NCBI GenBank assembly: GCA_006386115.1
Contig: VFIW01000117.1
Span: 62,001 to 126,000, forward strand
Source of the DNA: Globisporangium splendens
Lineage: Eukaryota; Oomycota; Peronosporomycetes; Pythiales; Pythiaceae
Direction: 5' to 3'
Length of the DNA stretch: 64,000 nt
Part shown: positions 23,064 through 62,138 of the stretch, piece after piece
Layout: each line of letters begins with the position of its first letter
How positions within the stretch are numbered: position 1 is the first letter of the stretch
Translations under genes and position numbers: made by a program
Notes under the pieces: generated by a model
Told to the model about the DNA's origin: nothing
Databases searched by the model: none
The model's input: only the letters and a program-made list of their open reading frames with translations

Positions 23064-26000
23064 TTACACGCCAGACATTGACAGTGACGACGGTCGACCC
23101 ACGAAACTGAAGCCATCAAACTCGTTCTTGCCGCCGCCGTTCGTGTTCATCAGCACACTCGCTTCGCGGTCCCGCGCCGTGATCTCATTGTTATGACGTG
23201 GCGCGTAGTGTGTGTCAAGCTTGCCGACGCCCGGGTTGAATGGCGGCGAGATCTTCTTCTCCAGCAGGTCTCGCCAGTTGATCTCGTCAAAGAACGGGTG
23301 GTTCAGCACTTCGTCAGCGCCGCCTCGGCCACTGCCCAGTCGCTGCATTGGGTCACGAGTCAGCAACTGCATAACAAGAGAGAAAGAGCAGACACGACAC
23401 GTTTCGTTAGCACACAAACAGAAGCACCATTAGATCCAGACAAACAAAACGTGCACGCACCCCACGAATTAGCGAGATCGCCGCGTCCGAGAAGGCCGGA
23501 GAGAATGTGACCCACTCCTGCTTCAGGATCGTCTGGAACATGATATCGCGGTTGCGGTGGTAGTATGGCGGCTTGCCGCCAATCATTTCGTAGAGCAAGA
23601 TGCCAAACGACCACCAATCAGCGGCCTTGCCGTACGTGTTGCCCTTGAGCAACTCGGGGGCGATGTACGCCGCCGTGCCACAGAACGTCGTCGCACCCTT
23701 CAGGTCCGAGACGCCGATCTTCGAGAGACCAAAGTCCGTAATGCGAACGTGGCCCTCGTGGTCCATCAGCACATTCTCAAGCTTCGCATCGCGGTAGATA
23801 ATATTCACACTGTGTAAGTGGGCAATCGCTGCACCGACTTCTGCGGCGTAGAACCGAGCCCAGTCCTCTGGGAATTTTCGACGTCGGCGAAGGTGGAACG
23901 CCAACGAGCCACCGCTGAGGTAGTCCATCACGAGATACAGCTTCGACTGACTCTGGAACGCGTAATGGAGCTTCACAATGAACGGGTGCGAGATCTCCGT
24001 GAGGATGCGGCGCTCGGCCATCGTCGTGTTCACAAGCCCCGATGACACGACGTGCTGCTTCTTCAGCACTTTCATCGCGTAGCATTCGTCCTTGTGCGGC
24101 GCCGTGAGCTTGCGGCACAAAAACACTTTGCCGAAGCCGCCCTGACCCACAACCTTCAAGAGGTCGAAATCCTTGTCCGTGACCGCGTGGCGACTGCGTT
24201 CTGTGTCCTTGCTCGACGTACTCGATGACGCCGTGCTGCTGCCACCTGGCGACGCACTTCGCTTTGGGATGGGTTTCGGCAGGTAATAGTTTGGCTTTCC
24301 CTTTTCATCCGTGGTAGCCAATGTGTTCGTGGCAGCAGCAGCCGCTGGTTTCTCGTCTGCATCGCCCGTCGAGAGGTCGCTGTTCTCATTCGCATCAGTC
24401 TCGCCCAAAATCACAATGTTCGAGTGGCGCCGTTGCTTGTTGTTGCTGCTCGGTTTCGCAGTCTTGCGCACCTTGCGGAGCTCAGCGCGCACATATCGGA
24501 CGACGGCTGTCATGCCTGTTCGATCTGGATTCGCGCCGACAAACGCAAACGCTGGGTCTTCCGATTTCTCCAGCATCTTTGGATTGCTTTCTGGTTCAAT
24601 CGTGTTCTCAGGCATGTACCCGATCGAGAGACACACACAGCCGACGCGTGCTTGCGAGTCCACGATCTGTCCACCAAGCGGCTCAAACGAGGCCTCCCAG
24701 TTGATTGATCGGCTGCCCAGCAGTTCGCGAATACCAAAGCTCTCGCTCGGATCAATCTCGTGCTTCGACTCGATGAACGCAATGCGGTGGATCTTTTCGC
24801 GTGCGCTTGTCTCGTAGGTTTCCAGGATCGACTTCACGAGCGCGCCACCACGTGCGAACGCGATGATCGACACTTGGCCCTTGCACTTGCTCACGAATTT
24901 CTCCCACACAAACAGCACGTGCTCCTTGGGCGTCGACGAGTTGGGGATCGGCACCTCGCGCTCAAAGCCACCGGCTTCGTACACCACGACCGAGTTGGAG
25001 AACGGGTTGCACACAACCACGCCGTAGCCTTCCTCCTGCGCGCGGCTGAAATACCGCGTCATCGACCACTTGTGGTCCACGGTTGTGGTTTGGTCGCTCG
25101 CATCATGCCGCCAGAGACCAAGCGGGCCAGAGTCTGAGATAAACATGATCACCTTCTTCGCACTCGCGTACGCCATGGAGCTGTAGAAGCGACACCGCAC
25201 AGGCGCGTCGGCCGATGGGATGAACTGCGGCGTGAAGTCCAGCTCCCGTTCCATGAAATGGTACAGATCCTTCTTGGACGAGCGCTCGCTCATGCGGACC
25301 GAGGAACGATTATCGGCGCGGTGTGCGGTCGATTTCGGCACTTCTTCGAGCAATGCAATGCCGCCCATATCGAGTTCGAGCGAATCGACCGAGCTCTTGC
25401 GCTCCCGGGAATCTTCTTCGTGCTTGGATTCGTCCTCTTCTTCGCCCTTGGCGTACGCCATCGGAGGAGGCTTCGTCGGCAGTTTCGTCTCGTTGTCGTC
25501 GTCGTCGCTGCTCGACTCGGCCGCCAACATGCTCAGTGTCTTGCGACGGCCCATGTTGCCCATGTGGACGCCAGACGCACGACTCGACTTGCGCTCTGGC
25601 ACTGGCACAGGTTGCGGCTCGGCCTTCGATTCTTCGTCAGAATCGCCGCCAAACGACGTGAAACTCGAATTCTTCGTCTCGCCATCTTCCACGATCGCGA
25701 AGTTTGGCGTGAGCGTCTGCCGCGTTGGCTTCTCCGAGTCGCGTTTCTTCTGGTTGTTGTTTTTATTTCTCGACGCCGGTGGTGTCGGTGGCTTCGGAAC
25801 CACCTTCGGGGATGGTGGCGGCGAGTCCGAATGCTCATAGGTCTCGACCGAAATTGGTTCTGGGGTTTTTGGACGAGGAGCTACAGGAGACGCTGGCGCT
25901 GGCATCGTGGCAATGGGCGAAATCGCTGGCTTCGTCCCCCCCTCTTGCTCCATTACATCGTCCACGTTCTCAGCAGCCTGGACTTGCAGCATCGATGGCT

Positions 26001-27813
26001 CAGCAGCCTTGCTGGTGTTTTTCGCATTCGTGGCTCGTGATGGGAATTGGCCATCGCGGTCGCCAATGTCAACACCTTCGGGCGTCTGCATCACGGCGAG
26101 AAGCAGCGTCCGCGCGCCTTCCGACAAGGCCTCGAGCTCGTCGAACGCGTTGTCGTCGTCCAGTTCCGGGTCGTCCTGCGAATCCATGCCGTCCCCGACC
26201 GACGATCGGTCGCCATGATTCCGGCGCGCATTGTTCTCGCCGACCGTCGTGCCCCGCAAGTTGTGGCCACACGCACCACAGAAACGCGAGCCCGTGAGCA
26301 CGGCATTACAGTTCGGGCAGCGCTTCTTCTCCACGTGCGGCTCCTCGACGACCGCCGTCAGCTTGCGCAGCGCATTCATCCATTTGTTGCGCTCACGGTC
26401 GTTGTCGGCGTACACGTAGTACGGCACCTGCTCGCTGGTCATAAACATAAACCCAAACGGCTCGCCATCCCACTTCTGCACGTCTTCGACCGCGACTTCG
26501 GCGAGCGGCTTTCCCTTGGCGCTATTCGCGAGATCGTAGTCCGAGTAGTACGAAATCAGGTTGCCACGCAGGATGAAGTACCGTTTCTTCCAGCTCTTCC
26601 GCTTGTGGCCCTGCTTCGTGAGGTACCCAGCGCAGGAGACTGGTTCAGGCGCCGTTGTATTCGATCGCTTCACCGTCTGCAGCCACTTCTGCTGCTCACC
26701 CACGGTGTCCGTACTCGCGTAGAACACGTTACCCGTTGACGTCTGGAACATCAGTCCGTTCGGCTCGCCATCCCACGGCGCAACACTCCGCACTTCGACC
26801 TCAGCGATCGCCGACTGATTCTCACGATACGCGCTCTGATCTGCATAGTGTCGCAGCGACGTACCGTTCAGCACGTAGTACGCCATGCGCTGGCTGGGCA
26901 CCAAGTGGCCGCGGCGCGTGAGGTACCCTTCACAGCTCACTTCTTCCGGTTCCACGACAAACTCCTTCAGCGCACGCAGCCATTTCGAGCGCTCGGCCTC
27001 AGACGCAGCGTACACGTAGTATGGGATCTGCTTGGTCGTGTAAAACATGAACCCGTGCGCTTCACCGGACCAGGGCGCGACTTTCGCGACCGTGACGCTG
27101 CCATACTTCTTGTTTTTCTCTTCGCCGGAAAAATACTCGAGCACGTCGCCGCGGAGCACAAAGTACCGCGTCTTCCAGTTCGTGAACACGTGGCCGCGTT
27201 TCGTGAGAAAGCCCTCGCATTTGATCTCCATGGAGGCACCCTCCGGGATCGTCGACGGCGACTCTTTCTCTCGACTCAACATAAACGTCTCGCGGGAGAA
27301 AATGCTACGTCGCGAGCTCGATCGGCGATGGCCCGGCGTCGTCGCTTGGCCGTTGTTGTTGTAACTGCTGCCATTGAACTGATTGTTCGACGACGACGAG
27401 CCCATGGGCGTGGTGGAAAACGACGTCGGTCCAAGCGAATTGCCGTGCGAGTACGACGCCTCGGACGCTTGGCTCATGGCGGCAAGGCTGGGGTTCGACG
27501 ACGGACGCGCGAGACCATTCAGGCCGCCGCTCGTGCTCCCGGCACTCATCGGGGCTGGCGGAATGTGAATCCCCTGCGGCGGATGCTGCGGGGGCGCCGG
27601 CGGAGGCGCGCGGTTGAAGAAACTGCCTCGCGACATGCGGCTTGTCTGCCGGTCGTTGCTGCGCACCGAGGGTGCGCCCGTGACGAAATCGTAGCCCGCA
27701 GACGAGGAGCGACGGAACGACTCGCGCAACGCATAGGACGTGGGCGACGTGACCTGGATCTCTTCCTCGTCCTCGAACTGCTGCTGCGGCTGCTGCGGGT
27801 GGTGCGCGCTCAT
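23064..27813 (-). CDS. Three PH domains, zinc ribbon, Arb2 domain and AGC kinase in one protein
   Basis: Two exons: 27813-23461 and 23366-23064. The donor follows IRG and the acceptor precedes LLTRDPMQRLG. The ATG at 27813 (MSAHHPQQ) is the first true ATG of the frame. Domains are: a Ser/Asn-rich N-terminus; three PH domains (about 200-295, 300-395 and 400-495; each starts CEGFL/CEGYL/CAGYL-T, has WK-x-RYF in two, and ends with a W-x-x-AL type helix); a zinc ribbon near 500-520 (CPNCNAVL, FCGACG); an acidic low-complexity linker; an Arb2-like alpha/beta-hydrolase domain (about 845-1110: EEGYGVVVCNP, EHVLFVWEKF, IIAFARGGALV); then an AGC kinase (about 1213 onward: GQGGFGKVF, YAMKVLKK, YRDAKLENVL, TDFGLSK, YIAPELL). 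It ends with an FDGFSFVG tail. It is probably a lipid-recruited Ser/Thr kinase. The Arb2 insertion is the odd part. Confidence 0.9.
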
Positions 27814-28085: not shown

Positions 28086-28590
28086 TACAAACTACATGAA
28101 AGGGAAGGAGCCTTCCGTGTGCGGGTTCATCATGCAAGAGCCGTTTCCTTACGATGCGAAGACAGAAAATGGATCTCGCTATCTCCGGCACATGCACCCA
28201 CCCGCACATTCCCCTCTATCCATCTAGTTGCCTCCATTCGTATCGCATTCATTCACTCATATACACGAGAAGCCCCCAGCCTTCTCTCTCTCTCACATGC
28301 CGCCAACATCAAGAGCTACGTACGTACCCGAGAAGCTCCCCAGACGGCGTGGGACTCTTTGCACAAGGCGCAACTGACTGAAGGGCGGCGGAAGCACAAG
28401 GAAGAGGAAGACTGTTGAGTATGCTCTCGTTCTCTCTCTCCGCTTGCTCTTCTTCTCTCTCACACTCGCTCACCTGCGCGTGTGTGTGTGTGTGTTTCTC
28501 TTTCGGCTCACTTCCTTCCTGCTTCTCGTTCTTTCTTTCAGTATGGGGGCTGAAAGAGGGGGAGACAAGGCTCGTCGCGCGCCGCACCCC

Positions 28591-29155
28591 AATGCAATGC
28601 AATAAAACAAATCACCCCCTCGTTCTTCTCTTCCTCCTCCTCCTCCTCCTTCTCATTTCCAGCAATGCAATATATTGTGGGTGCAGATGTCATCTGGATG
28701 CAGAAGTCCAGCAATGCAATACATATTGAACGGGTTGTTGGGGTGGCTGCAAACAATGCAATGTATTCTGTTGTAGACTTAGTCTACTTACGAAGAAACT
28801 GAGGAGTTGAATGTGAGCAATGCAATAAACATTGCGTTTGTTGACTTAATGGAGCATCGCTGATTTACAGTACTGTTGAAATAGCTTCCTGTTGCTGGTT
28901 CACTGACTGTTTTCGATTCAAACTGTCTGCAGTAAACTTCATACTGCAGCACAGAAGTGGAAGCTCCAGTGAGAAGGTGACGGAGCGCAGTCACCCAAAA
29001 AGTAAAACTATGGAGCAGCTCAGCTACACACAATACAATGTGCAACACGCCGTGTTACTGCAATATATTGTGTCGTCACTTGCGACCACAACACTCGAAA
29101 AATCGTCCAACAACAGCATTGGCCACGTGGAAGCACCACAATACACAATGCAATT
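28591..29155. repeat. Cluster of GCAATGCAATA-like repeats
   Basis: Copies begin at about 28591 (AATGCAATGCAATA), 28661 (AGCAATGCAATATATTG), 28711 (GCAATGCAATACATATTG), 28753 (ACAATGCAATGTATT) and 28816 (AGCAATGCAATAAACATTG). Weaker forms lie at 29028, 29058 and 29138. Several run into CAAT-n-ATTG inverted repeats. The two copies at 28659 and 28708 share TCCAGCAATGCAATA. Confidence 0.7.
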
Positions 29156-29325: not shown

Positions 29326-32243
29326 CTACGCGCACGCCGTCGTGAAGCACGCGATGGAGCAGTTGTAGTACACGCGCGGCTGCGCGATTCCAGTCCCCTC
29401 GCAGTCGCTCGTTGCGGCAAAGGGTCCCGTGCACACGTGCGAGTTCACGTCGGCCTCGTAGCCCGGGTCGCACGTCAGCGCGTGGCCATTCTGCTGGATC
29501 GCGATGTTCGAGTTGCCGCAGCCTGTGCTACCGACGCCTGTGCATGGACCAGAGCACGTCGCCGTGTACGTGTGCTTGGTGTACTTGCACCTGCGCGTGA
29601 GGATCTGCCATCTCGCGAAAGATGAAGACGGCAGCTCGATGATCTGGTTGGGCGTGACCACGTGGAACGCGACGTACACGTCGATGACCGAATTGAAAAA
29701 TGCTGAAGACGTCGCCGCGAGCTCGATGGTTTCGCTCGGTTGCACCACGATTTGCCTCGATGTGGCGTCGGTCCACGCGACTCCGGAGCCTGCGACCCGA
29801 ATCTTGGCAAAGTTGGCGTGCAACGAGCAGCAGCCCGAGCACTGCGTGTACGTGAACGGCGCTGAATCGCCATAAAGCGCGCCAATGCGACCAGTGCCTG
29901 ATGGACATTGAGGCGCGCCGATTATTTTGGCGATGATCGGGATGTCGAAGCCCGTGATGGGCACCACGTACTGTGTCGCGAGGTTTTGCGCCAACGTTTG
30001 CGGGATCGTAAACGGCGTCACTGTTCGGATTAATGGAGATGCGTCGTCGTAGTTGGTGCCATGTGCATTTTCAATGAGGTAGCTTGTTCCAGCAAGCGGA
30101 TGAGGACCACTGCTGCTGGTAGGGAAATGGTAGACGAGGTTGCCCTGGATCACTGCTTGGTGGACGCCAACGGCCATGATCGCAGCGGAATGCGCAACGC
30201 GGCGGCCAAAGTGATGGATCTGGTTGAACGACACGTTCGCATTGCGTGAGTACAGCAATTTGCTCAAGACGGGAGTTGCCCACGCGTTGCGGCGGAACGC
30301 TCGCCGTGCGAGGATCGCGATGCCGTTGGAGCCGACGAACGAGATGTTGTTGTTCGCGAGGCGCACGCGGTCGCTCTCCCCCGACACGACGATGGCATTG
30401 CCGCCGATTTTCTCAAACGTGCAGTGCTCGATCACGATGCTGTCCACAGTCTCGAAAAACACCGCGGCGATGCGCGCCATTGGCCATTCCGAGCCAGGAA
30501 TTCGTTCATTTGTCCATGAAAGACATTAAATAGCAGGTGCAAACGTGAAGCAGCATGACAGCAAGACAAGTTATAAGCACAGACATACTTACACACATCG
30601 GTATGCCGAAGCTACGTGCCAGAAAACACGAGATGGCGAAACTGCAAATGCGAGGCTTTGGTTCGCGAATCTGTCTCCAGTAGCGACGACGACGCATGAG
30701 CAGCTTGGATGAACTGGTTGTCTCGGGATCCGCTTACCCGAACAAGTTGGCGCAGCACAGGGATCTCGAGCGCCATGGCAGCCATCGTCGCTGGCGTTGC
30801 CGAGGCTGAATCCAGTGGAATCACGTACAGACACTTTGTGGTAGCATCAAAGAACCACTCGCCTGGCGAATCCAGCTCCTGAAACACGTTTTCGACTCGA
30901 AACGATGCACTTGTTTGACTCGTTGCGGTGCTTGCGAGTTCATGCTCGAACGTCTCGAACGAGAGCTCAGTACCACCTGCGCCAGCGCGAATCTGGCCTT
31001 CGTTCCCTATGATCTTCACTGATTCGACGGAATAAAACAAATTCGCAGCCTCCGAGCTGTTTGGATGCACTTCCAGCACCATGCTCTGTGGGTTCGTCCA
31101 TTGCGAGGCTTTCGATGAGAACGTCGCGGGATCAAAGAATACCTTGTCGGGATTCTCAACTTTGCTTGCTGGAGCATACGAGCAATTGAATAGTCCACGA
31201 AGCGGGGACGCGACGGGATCTGAAATCGCAAAGCAGTTTGGAAAACCTGCTCGTGGGTATGGAACATTGTCGACGTACAGTGTCGAGAACGAGAATTGGG
31301 TATCGGGAGAGACTGGTGCTGGAAGGAACGGCGTGAGATCGGCTTGGAAGATCTTGAGCGTTTGTTGCGTGACCCCACTACCGACGGTGAGTGCTCGAGA
31401 CAAAGTCCACGTCGATATGGAGCTTGCAGGGATCAGTGTAGAGCCAGAAAGCGTCACTTTCTCGCACTCTTTACAGGAAAGCGTGCAGACCTCGACGCAA
31501 TCTTCCTCTTTCCGCAAGTCTTTGCCAAAGAGATGCGTAAACTTATTGTGAAACGTTTCCGAGTACGTTTTTCGCTCCAGTTGTAGTGCACACGCGCGCA
31601 TACACCCGATAACACAGGACGCGAGTGGACTAGCGTAGCACGTGTGCCCCACACCGTTTTTGTCGACGCAGACGTCGCCAATGTCCATGTTTTCCACCTG
31701 TGGCGGCGCGATCGGTTGCTTGAGTAGTGAATTGCTGGTGACATTGATCCCCATCTGAAGGAACGGGTCCACGGGTCCTGTCCTGGTCGTTTTGTCGCCA
31801 ACGCCATTCCAAAGCAGCCGTGGTGGAGTCGCTAGATGGGAGCGGTAGGGAAACCCAAGAACCGAGGTCGCTGCATTCTCCACGGCTGGATCGCAATATG
31901 CCTGATACGTCACGGGAGCTTGTGCTGAGAGTCCAGAGTCGTCAGCACCAAACTCCAAGGTCTCTGCTAGCGCGTATCGTCCCGCACAGAGAAACATGTT
32001 GACCGGCGCGTTGGCATTCGCTGGTTTCTGCTTTTGCACTTGCACCTCTTGTTTGGCCCGCGCTAGTGTCTGGAATGGCTTGGCAAAGCTCCCGTCGTTT
32101 GCCGTGTCACTTCCTGTGGGCGACACATACAAGTTCACGGGTGCGATGATGGCTTGAACGGAGACTCCTACGAGTCCTCCGATGAGCCACAGCCATACAA
32201 TTGCGGCATACAGTGTCGTCATGACCCGCGTTATCGTCATCAT
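29326..32243 (-). CDS. Secreted right-handed beta-helix protein
   Basis: Two long reading blocks, 32243-30612 and about 30510-29326. The preferred start is MMTITR at 32243, which gives a signal sequence (AAIVWLWLIGGLVGVSVQA). An ATG further upstream in the same frame would bury it. Directly after it comes NLYVSPTGSD with GSFAKPFQTLARA, the typical entry to right-handed beta-helix repeat proteins. A Cys-rich segment follows. The second block has beta-helix coils (IEHCTFEKIGGNAIVV, VRLANNNISFVG, NVSFNQIHHFG) and a Cys-rich C-terminus. Such proteins bind or cleave polysaccharides, and I cannot name the activity. The junction between the blocks is unusual: coding similarity seems to resume at WTNERIPG without an AG acceptor before it. 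Confidence 0.75.
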
Positions 32244-57377: not shown

Positions 57378-60300
57378 TCAGCCGATCAGCCTCTTGATCT
57401 GGTCTTTGATCTCTTGAAGCGAGTGGTTGTATGAAGACGGAATTGCCGTGCAGGCTTTGTAGCAACCACTAGATTCTCGTACGAGATCGTCTTGGTATCT
57501 CATAAAGATGTACTCGCGAAGGGGAAGCGGGCGCTTGACCACGGGGAGTTTCCAGTCGGGGAAGATCACATGAAAATCTGAAAACTTGATCCACTTGTCC
57601 TCTCTGAGAAACCTTCTCTTTTCTTTGACTTGTACCGCACAGCTTCGATGATCGAGCTCCTTCGTAGTGAATTCGTGGCAACCACGAAGTCCACTTGGCT
57701 GGTGGTAGCTGTCGTGACACTTGTCAAATTCGGAACCTTCGTGCCCATAGTACTCGGTACAAGGACACCTGCACATTGGACATGGCTCACCGCAACGAGG
57801 TGTAATTCCGTCAACTGCTCCATACCCACGGTCCATAATATAGCTCACCACGTCAGGAACCAAATCGCTCGTGCTGAAATCGTTGACCGGGGACAGCACA
57901 GATAGAGCTTCAAGAGCAGCTTTGCGGACATTTGGAAGAGAGTTGTCTGCGATTTTTGCGAATATCGCTTCTGATTGACTGTCACACGCGGCGTTCTCAT
58001 CGTTTTCGTCTGGGATGTTCTCCAGCAGACAATTTGAGGAGCCAGACAACAACGAGTCAACGAGGCTGGACCTCAAACTGAGCAAAAATGTCTTCGATCT
58101 GTCTTGAGGAGCGCCATACGCCTTGTCGGCTGCAGTAACGATGCATTTCTGGATTGATGAGACGAAATTCTCCAGGAACGAAACAAGAGTTCGGTCGATT
58201 TCTGAACGGATGAGGGCTGCAATGATTTGATTATAATGGTCCTTGGGGTCTTGAATCTTTCGCATCATATCCTCATAGTCACCATTTTCGATGAGTGCAA
58301 GCAGCGACATGTCTACGTGAGCTTGCATGACGTCAGGATCACTAACCCAGCGCCTGTGCTTTAGCTGCTGGCCAATATACACAGTCAGATCTTGCCGAAA
58401 TCCCTTGACGAGGTTGCACTGCAACCAACTTGTAACAGTGGTCACAAGGAAATCAGCGCCTTGATAGCCTTGACTGAGAGCAAAAAAGTAGGTCTTCATA
58501 GATTCTTCGCACGTTCGAAATTTCACAGACACGCTGTTACTTTCGTCCCACTTCCTCTGAATGACCTTGAGCTCCTCACAAAGCACTTTGTACAGCAAGT
58601 CGTACACCTTTTGCTTGAGGCAGACTCCAACTGCCATCGTGTCTTCTGCCTCAAACAGCATTGCGCTTGCCATTTCGAAGCAGTCCACAACAACCTTGTC
58701 ACTGTATCTCTTTACTGTTGATATGGTCAATTGCACCCGCGATATGATCTCGTACTGCAACTGGGCTTCCTTTTCATCCTTGTCCTTCTCGGTAGTTGAT
58801 GACCCACGGAACGCCTGCCACGCCAGTTTTTTAAGCTTACTTTTCACTGAGTTGAAGTCCATCCAGCTGCCTTCGCCATCGTCATCGAATGATTGCGCTG
58901 AGTACTCGTAATCTGGTTGTGGAATTGAGTTCAGCATCTGTGTGCGCACTTCATAGATCTTCCTTTGCACGTCTTTGTGGAACGGAGGGTGTTCTTCATT
59001 TGCTTCGCTCACAAGACGACTGAAGATCTTTTCAAACAACTGGTTCAGTTCATCGTGTGAGATGCACTTGTTCCTTTTGCCACTTCGGAAAAGCGCATTC
59101 GCCTCGGTTCTCAACTTGCTCTTGTACACCTCTACAAAGTTGTCATACAGAAAAACAACGTTGATTTGATCCTGCACCATGCGAAACCAGTGCTCCTTTT
59201 GGTTGAACTTCATCCGGTTCCAGTTGTTAAACGTCTCTGTTCGCCATTTGGTAAAATGTGGATCATTCAGAAGCTTTTTCATCTGCAGGTCGAGCACGGA
59301 GAGATGCTGGAGAATCGATACACGCATTTTGCTGTGATATTTCTCCACTATAGCGGAAACATCTTGTGTTTGCAATGAACCTTGGACGGTGTCTCCTGCG
59401 GCAGCTGGGCTGGCGTGAGTACTCTCTCGAACTTCTTTGCAGATAGTGTCAAATGACTCAGCATAATGCGATGACAGCTTTTGGCAGAGTGTACTGAACT
59501 CTCGCATCAGTAGGTCGTAGTTCGATTTCTCAAAAGCTTCTTTGAAATTCAAATTGAAGTTGGAGTGCTGAATGCAATCCCACACCAACGTCAGGTAATC
59601 CTTGAACTGTACGAAGGAGCGCGGATTCCATTGCTTTTCCTCACAGACTCGCTCGTGAAGATGCTCCCGAAATGCACATAGCCGGCGACCAAACTCAGGC
59701 ACTGGGATATCGTGCGGAGCAAACGACTGGGCTTTGATCGTGCCCAGCATTCGGACGTCGCTTTGATCTTCATTGTTGATATCAACATTCAAGCTCTGGA
59801 AATACGCAGTTGAGCTGTCTGTAGTTGTACCAGAAATACCGGAAAGCGCACGGCGGCGTGTTTCCTCGACTATGCTGGCGTTTGTATTCAGCTGACGAAC
59901 CAGCATGTGCACGATGTTTTCCATTTTGCTTCGCTCAGCGAGGTCGATCTGGTTGAATGTGAAGAAGAGCTTGGACGGAAGCCGGCCGCCGTGCTGATAA
60001 GCAAGCTCCGAGTCGAGGTGCACTGACAAAACGATCGGAAGGATTTCGTTAATTGTGTCCGTTGACTCACCCTTGGTGAGAACGACCGTCGCATCCGCTG
60101 GGAGCACAGCTAGTGTCGCCATTCGATTGTCGCGCCATACGCTGTCGTCACGACCAACATATTCTGGAGCTCGAACACCTTCCGTATCCATCAGAATGAT
60201 GTAGTCGTATTTTTTGCGATCCTCGCACTTCAGTAGCTGCATGCTGACACCCCGCGTACAGCGTGATACGCTGGTACGCAATCGAACCCCAAACATGTAG

Positions 60301-62138
60301 TTCAGCAACGTCGATTTTCCCGACGACTGGACACCCATCACTGACAGAACCTGCACTTTAGCACCGGGTAACTTCGAGTCCAATGAGTTCAAAACCCCTT
60401 GGATCCACTTCATGTTCACCATCGCTGCATCGCCGTCCATCAATTCCAATGAAAAGCCGTCGAGAAGATGCTGAGCAGCCATGTCTGCGAGATGTGATCT
60501 GTTGTTCGGATCTGCCGCATACAGGTGCGACAATTCTCTCCAAAGATGCTCCATCCCAAGTACCGCCAGGTTCCAAGCTTCCACGGTGTCGTCGATCCTC
60601 TCCCGATTAGGTTTGCTGTCCTTAAATTGGTACTGCTCCAGAGCGGCGCGATAATCGGATCGTTTCATGTCAGCAGTGTCTTCGCAACTCACAGAGATCC
60701 ATCGCTCAAAATCCAGCAGCCCAGCAACACGAATCTCAGCATCCTTTCCGCTAAGGATCGACTCAAAAAGAGTAATAACGGCATGATGTCCAACTTTCCC
60801 AGCAGCGACCTTTCTCGCGTTTTGACACTTCTCAATTTCGTCCTGCAGCGTTTGCCTCTTGGTGACATCCATCTCATGCAGTTGCTTAATACGCAAGCAC
60901 GATTCATCGGCAAAATGACGCTGGAGGATCAACACTTCACTGCGCAATGCAGAGATATCAATACCGTTGAGCACGTTACCGAAATCAAACCTTCCCAAGT
61001 AGTCCGCTCCGATAATGCCCAAGGTATCAATGCTACCAAGAGGCACCCGAGTCGTATTGCTGTTGCTGAGTTCAATTTCTTCCAGCAAATACTCGGAGAT
61101 TCGCAACGCAGACGTCTTGCTCGTGCATCTCAAAGACACCACAAAGGCGGGCTCGTCTTGCTCTCGAATGTCATTTTGGTCAGTATTACCGCAAGCCCAT
61201 TTTAAAAGTATGCCGCGCTTCATGTCTATCTTGGTGCGCAGGAAGCCACGGCTATCCATATCCACATCTGCAATCACGGCATCTGCAAACTCTTGGATGA
61301 GGTGTAGAAATGGCGTATAGTCACCAATTACGTGCAACACCATCACTGGAGCAAACGTGTTGTTGGTTTTGTCGTGCAGAAAGCCCCAGCCAAGCTCGGC
61401 TATAGGCGCAAATCCTGTCGATTTTGTACTATAGTCACGGTCCAGACAGTAAAACGAGTTCACGTGAAAAATGCTGCTGATCCAGTCTTTTGCTCCGCTT
61501 CGATCTTCGGACCTCTCGGACACCACTGCGACCCGCATGTACGAGCAATCGCGCGCAAGACAGGCAGTCACAGAGTTGTCACCATTGTGAGCAACCACGG
61601 TATCAACGAGCTCAAGGCTTGTAGTTTGCGCATGGAAGCCTGTTTCCTCATCCTCATTCGTTATTGGGGTGATAAATGGGACAAGGAAACGCCGGTCCAG
61701 CAGAAGCCGCGCGATCTCTGACTGAGCCGGAACACTTAATGACGATTGTAGTTTGATCATTGCATCATACACGCTTGGGTGCAGGAGAGCTGAGCTGGCT
61801 CGACTGCGTGCTGCACCACGGGAGACACGTCCACCGCTTTCCTGGCCTTGAGACTCACCGGGTAATCGAGAGTAGAGCTCGCTGGGGATGTCTAGGCGGT
61901 GCTTAATGACGTAGAGAAGCTTAGCCTGTAGACTTTCGCTGTGTTTTGGCCGCGGCTTGTCGATCAGAAGCTGACTATACGGCAGCTGGTCACTCTTTAA
62001 CATCCGTTGCTCAGCTCTAGAGATCGGGGGAATCAACCCAGGAGTTCCATTGTCGGCACGACCAGACAGCTCGGTTGGCTCCCTGTCGGAGACAATTGCT
62101 CGCGGACGCACCCACGCATCATCGGAGCAAGCAGCCAT
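57378..62138 (-). CDS. Very large GTPase, VLIG/GVIN type
   Basis: A single uninterrupted frame of 1586 codons from the ATG at 62138 (MAACSDDAWVRPR). The GTPase domain lies at about residues 595-760: P-loop VMGVQSSGKSTLLNYMFG, switch region RCTRGVSMQLL, DTEG (G3) in ILMDTEGVRAPE, and FTFNQIDLAE as the G4 candidate. A long helical region follows. The C-terminus has a Cys/His cluster (CGEPCPMCRCPC, HEGSEFDKCHDSYHQPSGL, then SCAV), which is characteristic of animal very large inducible GTPases. The N-terminal 590 residues resemble the URGCP/GVIN pre-G region (ILLKWACGNTDQND). In animals these proteins are interferon-induced or proliferation-linked; their role in oomycetes is unknown. The single-exon structure is normal for the family. 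Confidence 0.88.
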   Translation of the reverse strand: MAACSDDAWVRPRAIVSDREPTELSGRADNGTPGLIPPISRAEQRMLKSDQLPYSQLLIDKPRPKHSESLQAKLLYVIKHRLDIPSELYSRLPGESQGQESGGRVSRGAARSRASSALLHPSVYDAMIKLQSSLSVPAQSEIARLLLDRRFLVPFITPITNEDEETGFHAQTTSLELVDTVVAHNGDNSVTACLARDCSYMRVAVVSERSEDRSGAKDWISSIFHVNSFYCLDRDYSTKSTGFAPIAELGWGFLHDKTNNTFAPVMVLHVIGDYTPFLHLIQEFADAVIADVDMDSRGFLRTKIDMKRGILLKWACGNTDQNDIREQDEPAFVVSLRCTSKTSALRISEYLLEEIELSNSNTTRVPLGSIDTLGIIGADYLGRFDFGNVLNGIDISALRSEVLILQRHFADESCLRIKQLHEMDVTKRQTLQDEIEKCQNARKVAAGKVGHHAVITLFESILSGKDAEIRVAGLLDFERWISVSCEDTADMKRSDYRAALEQYQFKDSKPNRERIDDTVEAWNLAVLGMEHLWRELSHLYAADPNNRSHLADMAAQHLLDGFSLELMDGDAAMVNMKWIQGVLNSLDSKLPGAKVQVLSVMGVQSSGKSTLLNYMFGVRLRTSVSRCTRGVSMQLLKCEDRKKYDYIILMDTEGVRAPEYVGRDDSVWRDNRMATLAVLPADATVVLTKGESTDTINEILPIVLSVHLDSELAYQHGGRLPSKLFFTFNQIDLAERSKMENIVHMLVRQLNTNASIVEETRRRALSGISGTTTDSSTAYFQSLNVDINNEDQSDVRMLGTIKAQSFAPHDIPVPEFGRRLCAFREHLHERVCEEKQWNPRSFVQFKDYLTLVWDCIQHSNFNLNFKEAFEKSNYDLLMREFSTLCQKLSSHYAESFDTICKEVRESTHASPAAAGDTVQGSLQTQDVSAIVEKYHSKMRVSILQHLSVLDLQMKKLLNDPHFTKWRTETFNNWNRMKFNQKEHWFRMVQDQINVVFLYDNFVEVYKSKLRTEANALFRSGKRNKCISHDELNQLFEKIFSRLVSEANEEHPPFHKDVQRKIYEVRTQMLNSIPQPDYEYSAQSFDDDGEGSWMDFNSVKSKLKKLAWQAFRGSSTTEKDKDEKEAQLQYEIISRVQLTISTVKRYSDKVVVDCFEMASAMLFEAEDTMAVGVCLKQKVYDLLYKVLCEELKVIQRKWDESNSVSVKFRTCEESMKTYFFALSQGYQGADFLVTTVTSWLQCNLVKGFRQDLTVYIGQQLKHRRWVSDPDVMQAHVDMSLLALIENGDYEDMMRKIQDPKDHYNQIIAALIRSEIDRTLVSFLENFVSSIQKCIVTAADKAYGAPQDRSKTFLLSLRSSLVDSLLSGSSNCLLENIPDENDENAACDSQSEAIFAKIADNSLPNVRKAALEALSVLSPVNDFSTSDLVPDVVSYIMDRGYGAVDGITPRCGEPCPMCRCPCTEYYGHEGSEFDKCHDSYHQPSGLRGCHEFTTKELDHRSCAVQVKEKRRFLREDKWIKFSDFHVIFPDWKLPVVKRPLPLREYIFMRYQDDLVRESSGCYKACTAIPSSYNHSLQEIKDQIKRLIG

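What the first reader, a model, noticed from the sequence alone, without database searches (positions are those of the whole stretch)
23064..27813. Fusion of three PH domains, a zinc ribbon, an Arb2 domain and an AGC kinase
Arb2-type domains occur in heterochromatin/Argonaute chaperone proteins (fission yeast Arb2, animal FAM172A) and at the end of class II histone deacetylases. I know of no described lipid-binding AGC kinase carrying one. In one polypeptide it would couple phosphoinositide sensing to a silencing-related fold, with the kinase at the C-terminus. Of all features here this is my best candidate for an undescribed system.
Basis: partly seen in the sequence, partly recalled or inferred. 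Interest (0 to 1): 0.75.

Follow-up and report, generated by a model that had tools for sequence, protein, structure and literature searches.

The report
Lipid-sensing oomycete kinase with Arb2 domain
This gene encodes a kinase that joins lipid-binding domains to an apparently dead enzyme domain known from gene-silencing proteins; such fusions were first reported in 2010, but here they turn out to be a family of eight related kinases, and a published relative needs the matching region to work.

Summary
One conserved gene (exons 27813..23461 and 23366..23064, minus strand, 1551 aa) encodes three PH domains, a zinc ribbon, an Arb2 domain and an AKT-like AGC kinase. The Arb2 call is supported by Pfam PF22749, a sequence-profile match to Clr3, and a predicted fold closest to Clr3. 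Of 47 homologues found, all list PH and Arb2 domains and 35 list a kinase; every named one is from an oomycete.

The claim that no such kinase is described is wrong: Judelson and Ah-Fong (2010) reported Arb2-bearing AGC kinases in Phytophthora and made the same chromatin/siRNA suggestion.

Two things go further. All eight Arb2 loci found in this genome are joined to AGC kinases, with PH, FYVE, C2-FYVE or no add-ons. And P. sojae PsZFPK1, published as a FYVE kinase, carries an unrecognised Arb2 domain inside the N-terminal region that it needs to function. The window gene's Arb2 lacks the nucleophile serine. I read it as a dead-hydrolase interaction or dimerisation module of a phosphoinositide-regulated kinase. 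A silencing role is neither shown nor excluded.

The parts
23461..27813 (-). Exon 1: residues 1-1451 (PH1-3, zinc ribbon, Arb2, most of the kinase domain)
   Evidence: N-terminus fits the consensus of homologues
23367..23460 (-). 94-bp intron, GT..AG
   Evidence: the spliced protein continues ..LIRG|LLTRDP.. as in homologues P0042, P0045, P0047
23064..23366 (-). Exon 2: end of the kinase C-lobe, AGC-type tail with hydrophobic motif FDGFSF (Ser1538), stop
26953..27219 (-). PH domain 1 (residues about 199-287), basic b1-b2 motif KRGHVFTNWKTRYF
   Evidence: motif pattern found in 27 of 48
26665..26934 (-). PH domain 2 (residues about 294-383), basic motif degenerate in the window gene
26359..26637 (-). 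PH domain 3 (residues about 393-485), motif KQGHKRKSWKKRYF kept in 48 of 48
   Evidence: nearest solved PH domains
26257..26331 (-). Zinc ribbon CPNC..FCGACG (residues 495-519)
   Evidence: below cut-off; kept in 47 of 48
26062..26142 (-). Short conserved motif DELEALSEGARTLLLAVMQTP (within residues 558-584), no Pfam match; possibly a helical docking segment (inference)
   Evidence: 45 of 48
24523..25272 (-). Arb2 domain, alpha/beta-hydrolase fold (residues about 848-1097; Pfam match 874-1046 = 24676-25194)
24844..24861 (-). Nucleophile elbow AFARGG; the serine position is Ala987
   Evidence: A 37, H 5, Q 3, G 2, S 1 of 48
24193..24519 (-). Linker between Arb2 and kinase (residues about 1099-1207), predicted disordered (pLDDT under 50)
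23461..24162 (-). AGC kinase domain, exon-1 part (residues 1218-1451): Lys1248, Asp1342, Asp1360, T-loop Thr1376

Best explanation
It is an AKT/PKB-like, phosphoinositide-regulated AGC kinase of oomycetes, and one of a family of at least eight Arb2-AGC kinases in this genome. Proposed working: PH1 and PH3 bind phosphoinositides and bring the protein to a membrane. A PDK1-type kinase phosphorylates the T-loop (Thr1376), and a second kinase phosphorylates the hydrophobic motif (Ser1538). The Arb2 domain lacks the catalytic serine; it works as a protein-binding, probably self-associating, module that the kinase needs for output, for example to hold a partner or pair two kinases. Shown here: architecture, conservation, Arb2 identity, absence of the serine, the kinase motifs, the paralogue family. 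Shown in print for the paralogue PsZFPK1: the T-loop Thr and the N-terminal region (which, by my comparison, contains its Arb2 domain) are needed. Inferred: lipid binding, dimerisation, any partner, the upstream kinases.
Against: The Arb2-kinase model has pTM 0.42 and pLDDT 54, so no packing or dimer is predicted. PsZFPK1 is a divergent paralogue with a FYVE-like domain in place of PH, its hydrophobic-motif residue is Ala, and the N-terminal deletion removed about 320 residues, not Arb2 alone. PsZFPK1-GFP looked like free GFP, strongest in the nucleus, so a nuclear role is not excluded. Lipid binding is untested; the PH1 pattern was found in only 27 of 48 (some models are truncated), and PH2 of the window gene has a degenerate motif. 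The ZFPK1-type and L001-type paralogues keep the nucleophile Ser (41 of 45; 34 of 37), so not all members need be dead.
Confidence: 0.55

Rival explanations
1. Silencing kinase: as in fission yeast Arb2 and FAM172A, the domain binds Argonaute or histones and brings the lipid-regulated kinase to the small-RNA or heterochromatin machinery.
For: Hda1 Arb2 binds histones (passages); FAM172A binds AGO2 (passages); this genome has Piwi-domain genes (3 matches); PsZFPK1-GFP signal was strongest in the nucleus; PMC3019232 makes the same link.
Against: The GFP pattern equals that of free GFP. The FAM172A residue that contacts AGO2 lies in its NLS segment, which I did not look for here. The domain comes with PH, FYVE and C2 modules, which point to membranes. 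No silencing phenotype of such a kinase is known to me.
Confidence: 0.15
2. Arb2 is a cis-acting inhibitor that docks on its own kinase domain and is released when the PH domains bind lipid, analogous to AKT's PH-in/PH-out switch (recalled).
For: Same order, Arb2 before kinase, in all 8 paralogues.
Against: A disordered linker of about 110 residues and no confident packing (pTM 0.42). Leaving out the N-terminal region of PsZFPK1 gave loss of function, not gain.
Confidence: 0.2
3. Arb2 is an active lipid or ester hydrolase working next to the kinase.
For: Alpha/beta-hydrolase fold; two paralogue groups keep the nucleophile Ser.
Against: In the window gene and its homologues that position is A, H, Q, G or (once) S.
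Confidence: 0.04
4. Two neighbouring genes wrongly joined.
For: 12 of the 47 homologous database models list no kinase domain, such as P0002 and P0021.
Against: PH, Arb2 and most of the kinase lie in one exon here; 35 of 47 homologous models list a kinase domain; kinase residues are nearly invariant across 23 aligned sequences.
Confidence: 0.02

Closest known systems
PITG_06776 and orthologues (Judelson and Ah-Fong 2010, PMC3019232)
   Different: The sections I read mention no PH or zinc ribbon on it; whether it is the orthologue of the window gene or of a paralogue could not be tested.
PsZFPK1 (PHYSODRAFT_345221, PMC10381902)
   Different: FYVE-like domain instead of PH, nucleophile Ser kept, hydrophobic-motif residue Ala; published without noting Arb2 (0 occurrences in the main text).
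AKT/PKB
   Same: PH N-terminal of an AGC kinase with T-loop and hydrophobic motif (recalled for AKT); best solved-structure match of the kinase domain.
   Different: Three PH domains, zinc ribbon, Arb2, about 1550 aa.
Arb2 domains of Clr3 and Hda1; FAM172A
   Different: Partner is an AGC kinase, not a deacetylase or a stand-alone protein.

Membership tests
Arb2 domain family (PF22749) | Score above Pfam's curated cut-off | tested here: met
   56.2 bits for the domain piece, cut-off 26.8; 24 of 24 alignment members match at E 0.001
Arb2 domain family (PF22749) | Fold and sequence closer to Clr3/Hda1 Arb2 than to other alpha/beta-hydrolases | tested here: met
   VIA-align ranks 1-4 are Clr3 and entries titled yeast histone deacetylase, HDAC-PC and HDAC-TC (Hda1, recalled), though ranks 4 and 5 are tied; profile hit to Clr3 E 1.1e-6. 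Foldseek's own list did not rank them first
Arb2 domain family (PF22749) | Homodimerisation through the arm, histone or Argonaute binding | not testable with these tools
   needs protein work
AGC kinase (AKT/PKB-like) | Catalytic Lys, Asp, DFG and the T-loop Thr before FCGT | tested here: met
   Lys1248, Asp1342, Asp1360, Thr1376; AKT2 251.7 bits
AGC kinase (AKT/PKB-like) | C-terminal tail with hydrophobic motif | tested here: inconclusive
   FDGFSF is present, but Pfam found no family in exon 2 alone
AGC kinase (AKT/PKB-like) | PH domain that binds 3-phosphoinositides | not testable with these tools
   basic motif kept in PH3 (48 of 48) and found in PH1 of 27 of 48; binding not tested
Active alpha/beta-hydrolase | Nucleophile Ser, Asp or Cys at the elbow | tested here: not met
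   Ala987; among 48: A 37, H 5, Q 3, G 2, S 1
Argonaute-chaperone / silencing proteins | Physical link to Argonaute or chromatin | not testable with these tools
   three Piwi-domain matches exist in the genome; that is no link
Published oomycete Arb2-AGC kinases | Arb2 N-terminal to an AGC kinase | tested here: met
   description in PMC3019232
Published oomycete Arb2-AGC kinases | Orthologue of PITG_06776 itself | not testable with these tools
   its sequence was not identifiable in the results

The most novel reading that the evidence does not exclude
Oomycetes evolved a family of membrane-lipid-gated kinases that use Arb2 as the adaptor to Argonaute or histones, so that phosphoinositide signals directly phosphorylate and tune small-RNA or chromatin silencing; the window gene is the PH-domain branch of that family.
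Probability: 0.1. Interest if true: 0.85.

Novelty: new variant of a known kind. Interest (0 to 1): 0.45.

Why it matters
Arb2 domains have been studied in chromatin and Argonaute proteins. Here every Arb2 locus found in the genome belongs to a kinase, which suggests the fold is a more general interaction module. It also offers a reading of a published result: the N-terminal region that PsZFPK1 needs contains an unrecognised Arb2 domain. That makes the domain's role in oomycete kinases directly testable.

Tried and rejected
Searching the genome with PF09757 gave nothing, and its controls were silent too, so I dropped it for PF22749. PDB sequence search with the window's Arb2 alone gave only chance matches (E 1.4 or worse); the paralogue profile was needed. 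The Arb2-plus-kinase model was too weak to use for packing. NCBIfam gave only kinase matches below their cut-offs. Database proteins that look like Arb2-RhoGAP fusions (P0103, P0114 and others) I take as models joined to a neighbouring RhoGAP gene, because P0114 holds the first residues of the kinase domain before its break; this was not tested further. A single origin of all 8 Arb2 kinases is not settled: 7 of 8 share a branch (89/86, not starred), the eighth (L001) stands apart, the label needs 2 changes, and one clade is not rejected (p-AU 0.088; tree of the top 30 of 92 kinase matches). Of the 22 tree kinases outside the 8 Arb2 loci, 8 were scanned with Pfam (single open frames) and none shows Arb2; the other 14 were not scanned, but the three Arb2 searches of the genome did not hit them. 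Spread beyond oomycetes was tested only by three word-based protein searches; absence elsewhere is not shown. Rows from unnamed sources could not be assigned to an organism. Not in print (library limits apply): 'Arb2 domain' gave 13 papers, of which, by the listing, only PMC3019232 puts Arb2 on kinases. PMC5990653 was seen only as a listing.

Full report
What is there. The minus strand carries a 1468-codon open frame at 23407..27813. Its last codons read into an intron: a GT..AG intron of 94 bp (23460..23367) joins residue 1451 in frame to exon 2 (23366..23064), giving 1551 aa ending in an AGC-type tail..FDGFSFVGRPSSLSMSGV. Pfam finds three PH domains, Arb2 (PF22749, 50.6 bits, cut-off 26.8) and a kinase (212 bits). 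A zinc ribbon scores below its cut-off but its pattern is kept in 47 of 48 sequences.

The Arb2 of this gene is very likely not an enzyme. The nucleophile-elbow position, between strand 141-147 and helix 150-160 of the model, is Ala987. Among 48 sequences it is A 37, H 5, Q 3, G 2, S 1. In two paralogue groups it is Ser: 41 of 45 in the PsZFPK1 group, and 34 of 37 (plus one Thr) in the L001 group; the remaining 6 did not match the search pattern. So the serine was probably lost in this branch. The Arb2 family of histone deacetylases is also described as lacking a catalytic triad (PMC11878206, passage).

The kinase looks active and AKT-like: Lys1248, Asp1342, Asp1360, Thr1376 and Ser1538 are present (Ser1538 counted from the printed tail); the best solved relatives are AKT2 and AKT1, S6 kinases follow about 11 bits behind. 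Of 33 homologues with TDFGLS, 30 keep the exact T-loop and 25 the hydrophobic motif. The basic PH motif is kept in PH3 (48 of 48), found in PH1 of 27 of 48, and degenerate in PH2 of the window gene. Between zinc ribbon and Arb2 lies a short motif, LSEGARTLLLAV, kept in 45 of 48, without a Pfam match.

Distribution. The Arb2 region finds 47 proteins; all 47 list PH and Arb2 domains, 35 list a kinase domain, and 12 do not (33 carry both kinase motifs tested). All rows with an organism name are oomycetes (Pythium, Globisporangium, Phytophthora, Nothophytophthora, downy mildews, Lagenidium, Aphanomyces, Achlya, Saprolegnia; taxonomy recalled). The closest named one is from Globisporangium ultimum (98% over 93% of the region), so the window is probably from a Globisporangium species (inference).

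A family, not a single oddity. PF22749 gives 9 matches at 8 loci in this genome. In all 8, an open frame with at least the C-terminal part of Arb2 also holds AGC kinase sequence: L001, L002 and L005 Arb2-kinase; L003, L006 and L008 Arb2-FYVE-kinase; L007 Arb2-C2-FYVE-kinase; and the window gene. FYVE is above its cut-off in L003 and L007 and below it in L006 and L008. In L005, L007 and L008 the Arb2 sequence is spread over exons; for L007 and L008 the exon pieces scanned alone score below the Arb2 cut-off (23.8 and 21.1), though the genome search places both over it (35.5 and 33.2). Searching with two different Arb2 pieces found 12 and 10 matches, all at the same 8 loci. No stand-alone Arb2 gene was found. 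Of the 14 kinase matches most like the window's, itself included, 8 are the Arb2 kinases; the six others show PX or no extra domain. A tree of 30 of the 92 kinase matches groups 7 of the 8 (89/86, not starred); one origin of all 8 is not rejected (p-AU 0.088).

What is in print. Judelson and Ah-Fong 2010 (PMC3019232; sections 8 and 9 read in full) list Arb2 on 2 AGC kinases of P. infestans, name PITG_06776, find it in P. ramorum, P. sojae and H. arabidopsidis, and link the domain to chromatin and siRNA. So the fusion is not undescribed. I could not tell which paralogue PITG_06776 is, and supplementary tables were not available.

A published relative with genetics. P. sojae PsZFPK1 (PMC10381902; abstract in part, section 3.1 and discussion in full, other passages by search) is described as a FYVE plus kinase protein; 'Arb2' does not occur in the main text. 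It is protein P0062: same gene number 345221, same RRIPCS motif, and if the start is Met89 of P0062 the T-loop falls at 602 and the hydrophobic-motif Ala at 766, exactly as printed. Pfam gives it Arb2 at 55.8 bits. Its Arb2 landmarks fall at residues 126-294 in the paper's numbering, inside the 'N-terminal region (2-321 aa)' that the authors left out of one construct. That construct, like those without FYVE or the kinase, behaved like the knock-out in growth, sporangia, oospores and virulence; T602A restored slightly and T602D like the full-length gene. So an Arb2-containing region is needed for an Arb2-AGC kinase to work. The deletion is larger than the domain, so a need for Arb2 itself is not proven. 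The protein's GFP pattern was called cytoplasmic with the strongest signal in the nucleus, like free GFP, and did not change with the deletions; it does not decide between cytoplasmic and nuclear roles.

Reading. The constant part of the family is Arb2-AGC kinase; the variable part is a lipid- or membrane-type module (PH, FYVE, C2) or none. Known Arb2 domains dimerise (Hda1, Clr3, FAM172A; passages) and one binds histones. The simplest account is that Arb2 is an interaction module of the kinase, dead as an enzyme in this branch, and the PH domains are the switch. A silencing role is possible (three Piwi-domain matches) but has no direct support. The weak two-domain model (pTM 0.42) tells nothing about packing.

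Score. The architecture is real and conserved, its core was published in 2010, and the parts I did not find in print are the family size, the PH/zinc-ribbon variant, the missing serine and the Arb2 domain of PsZFPK1. I rate interest 0.45.

Noticed in passing
window 28590-29154: The word CAATGCAAT occurs 9 times in the window (0.88 expected, 0 of 100 shuffles reach 9); 7 of the 9 lie in this 565-bp stretch about 0.8-1.3 kb upstream of the kinase start codon.
   Followed up: partly
P0007 (Aphanomyces astaci, 2041 aa): One gene model holds two successive PH-zinc ribbon-Arb2 units without a kinase, perhaps a tandem duplicate read as one gene; the second Arb2 matches both PF22749 and PF09757.
   Followed up: no
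window 57378-62138 (-): A 1586-codon frame with a URGCP-like GTPase domain (191 bits).
   Followed up: no
window 29326-30480 (-): A neighbouring frame with a right-handed beta-helix match (28.2 bits); the 543-codon frame next to it (30612-32243) has no Pfam match.
   Followed up: no
own genome C155:31923 and C38:106744; C123:389863 and C178:52312: Near-equal pairs of matches (Piwi genes; kinase loci L026/L027) suggest that some regions are present twice in the assembly, perhaps as two haplotypes.
   Followed up: no
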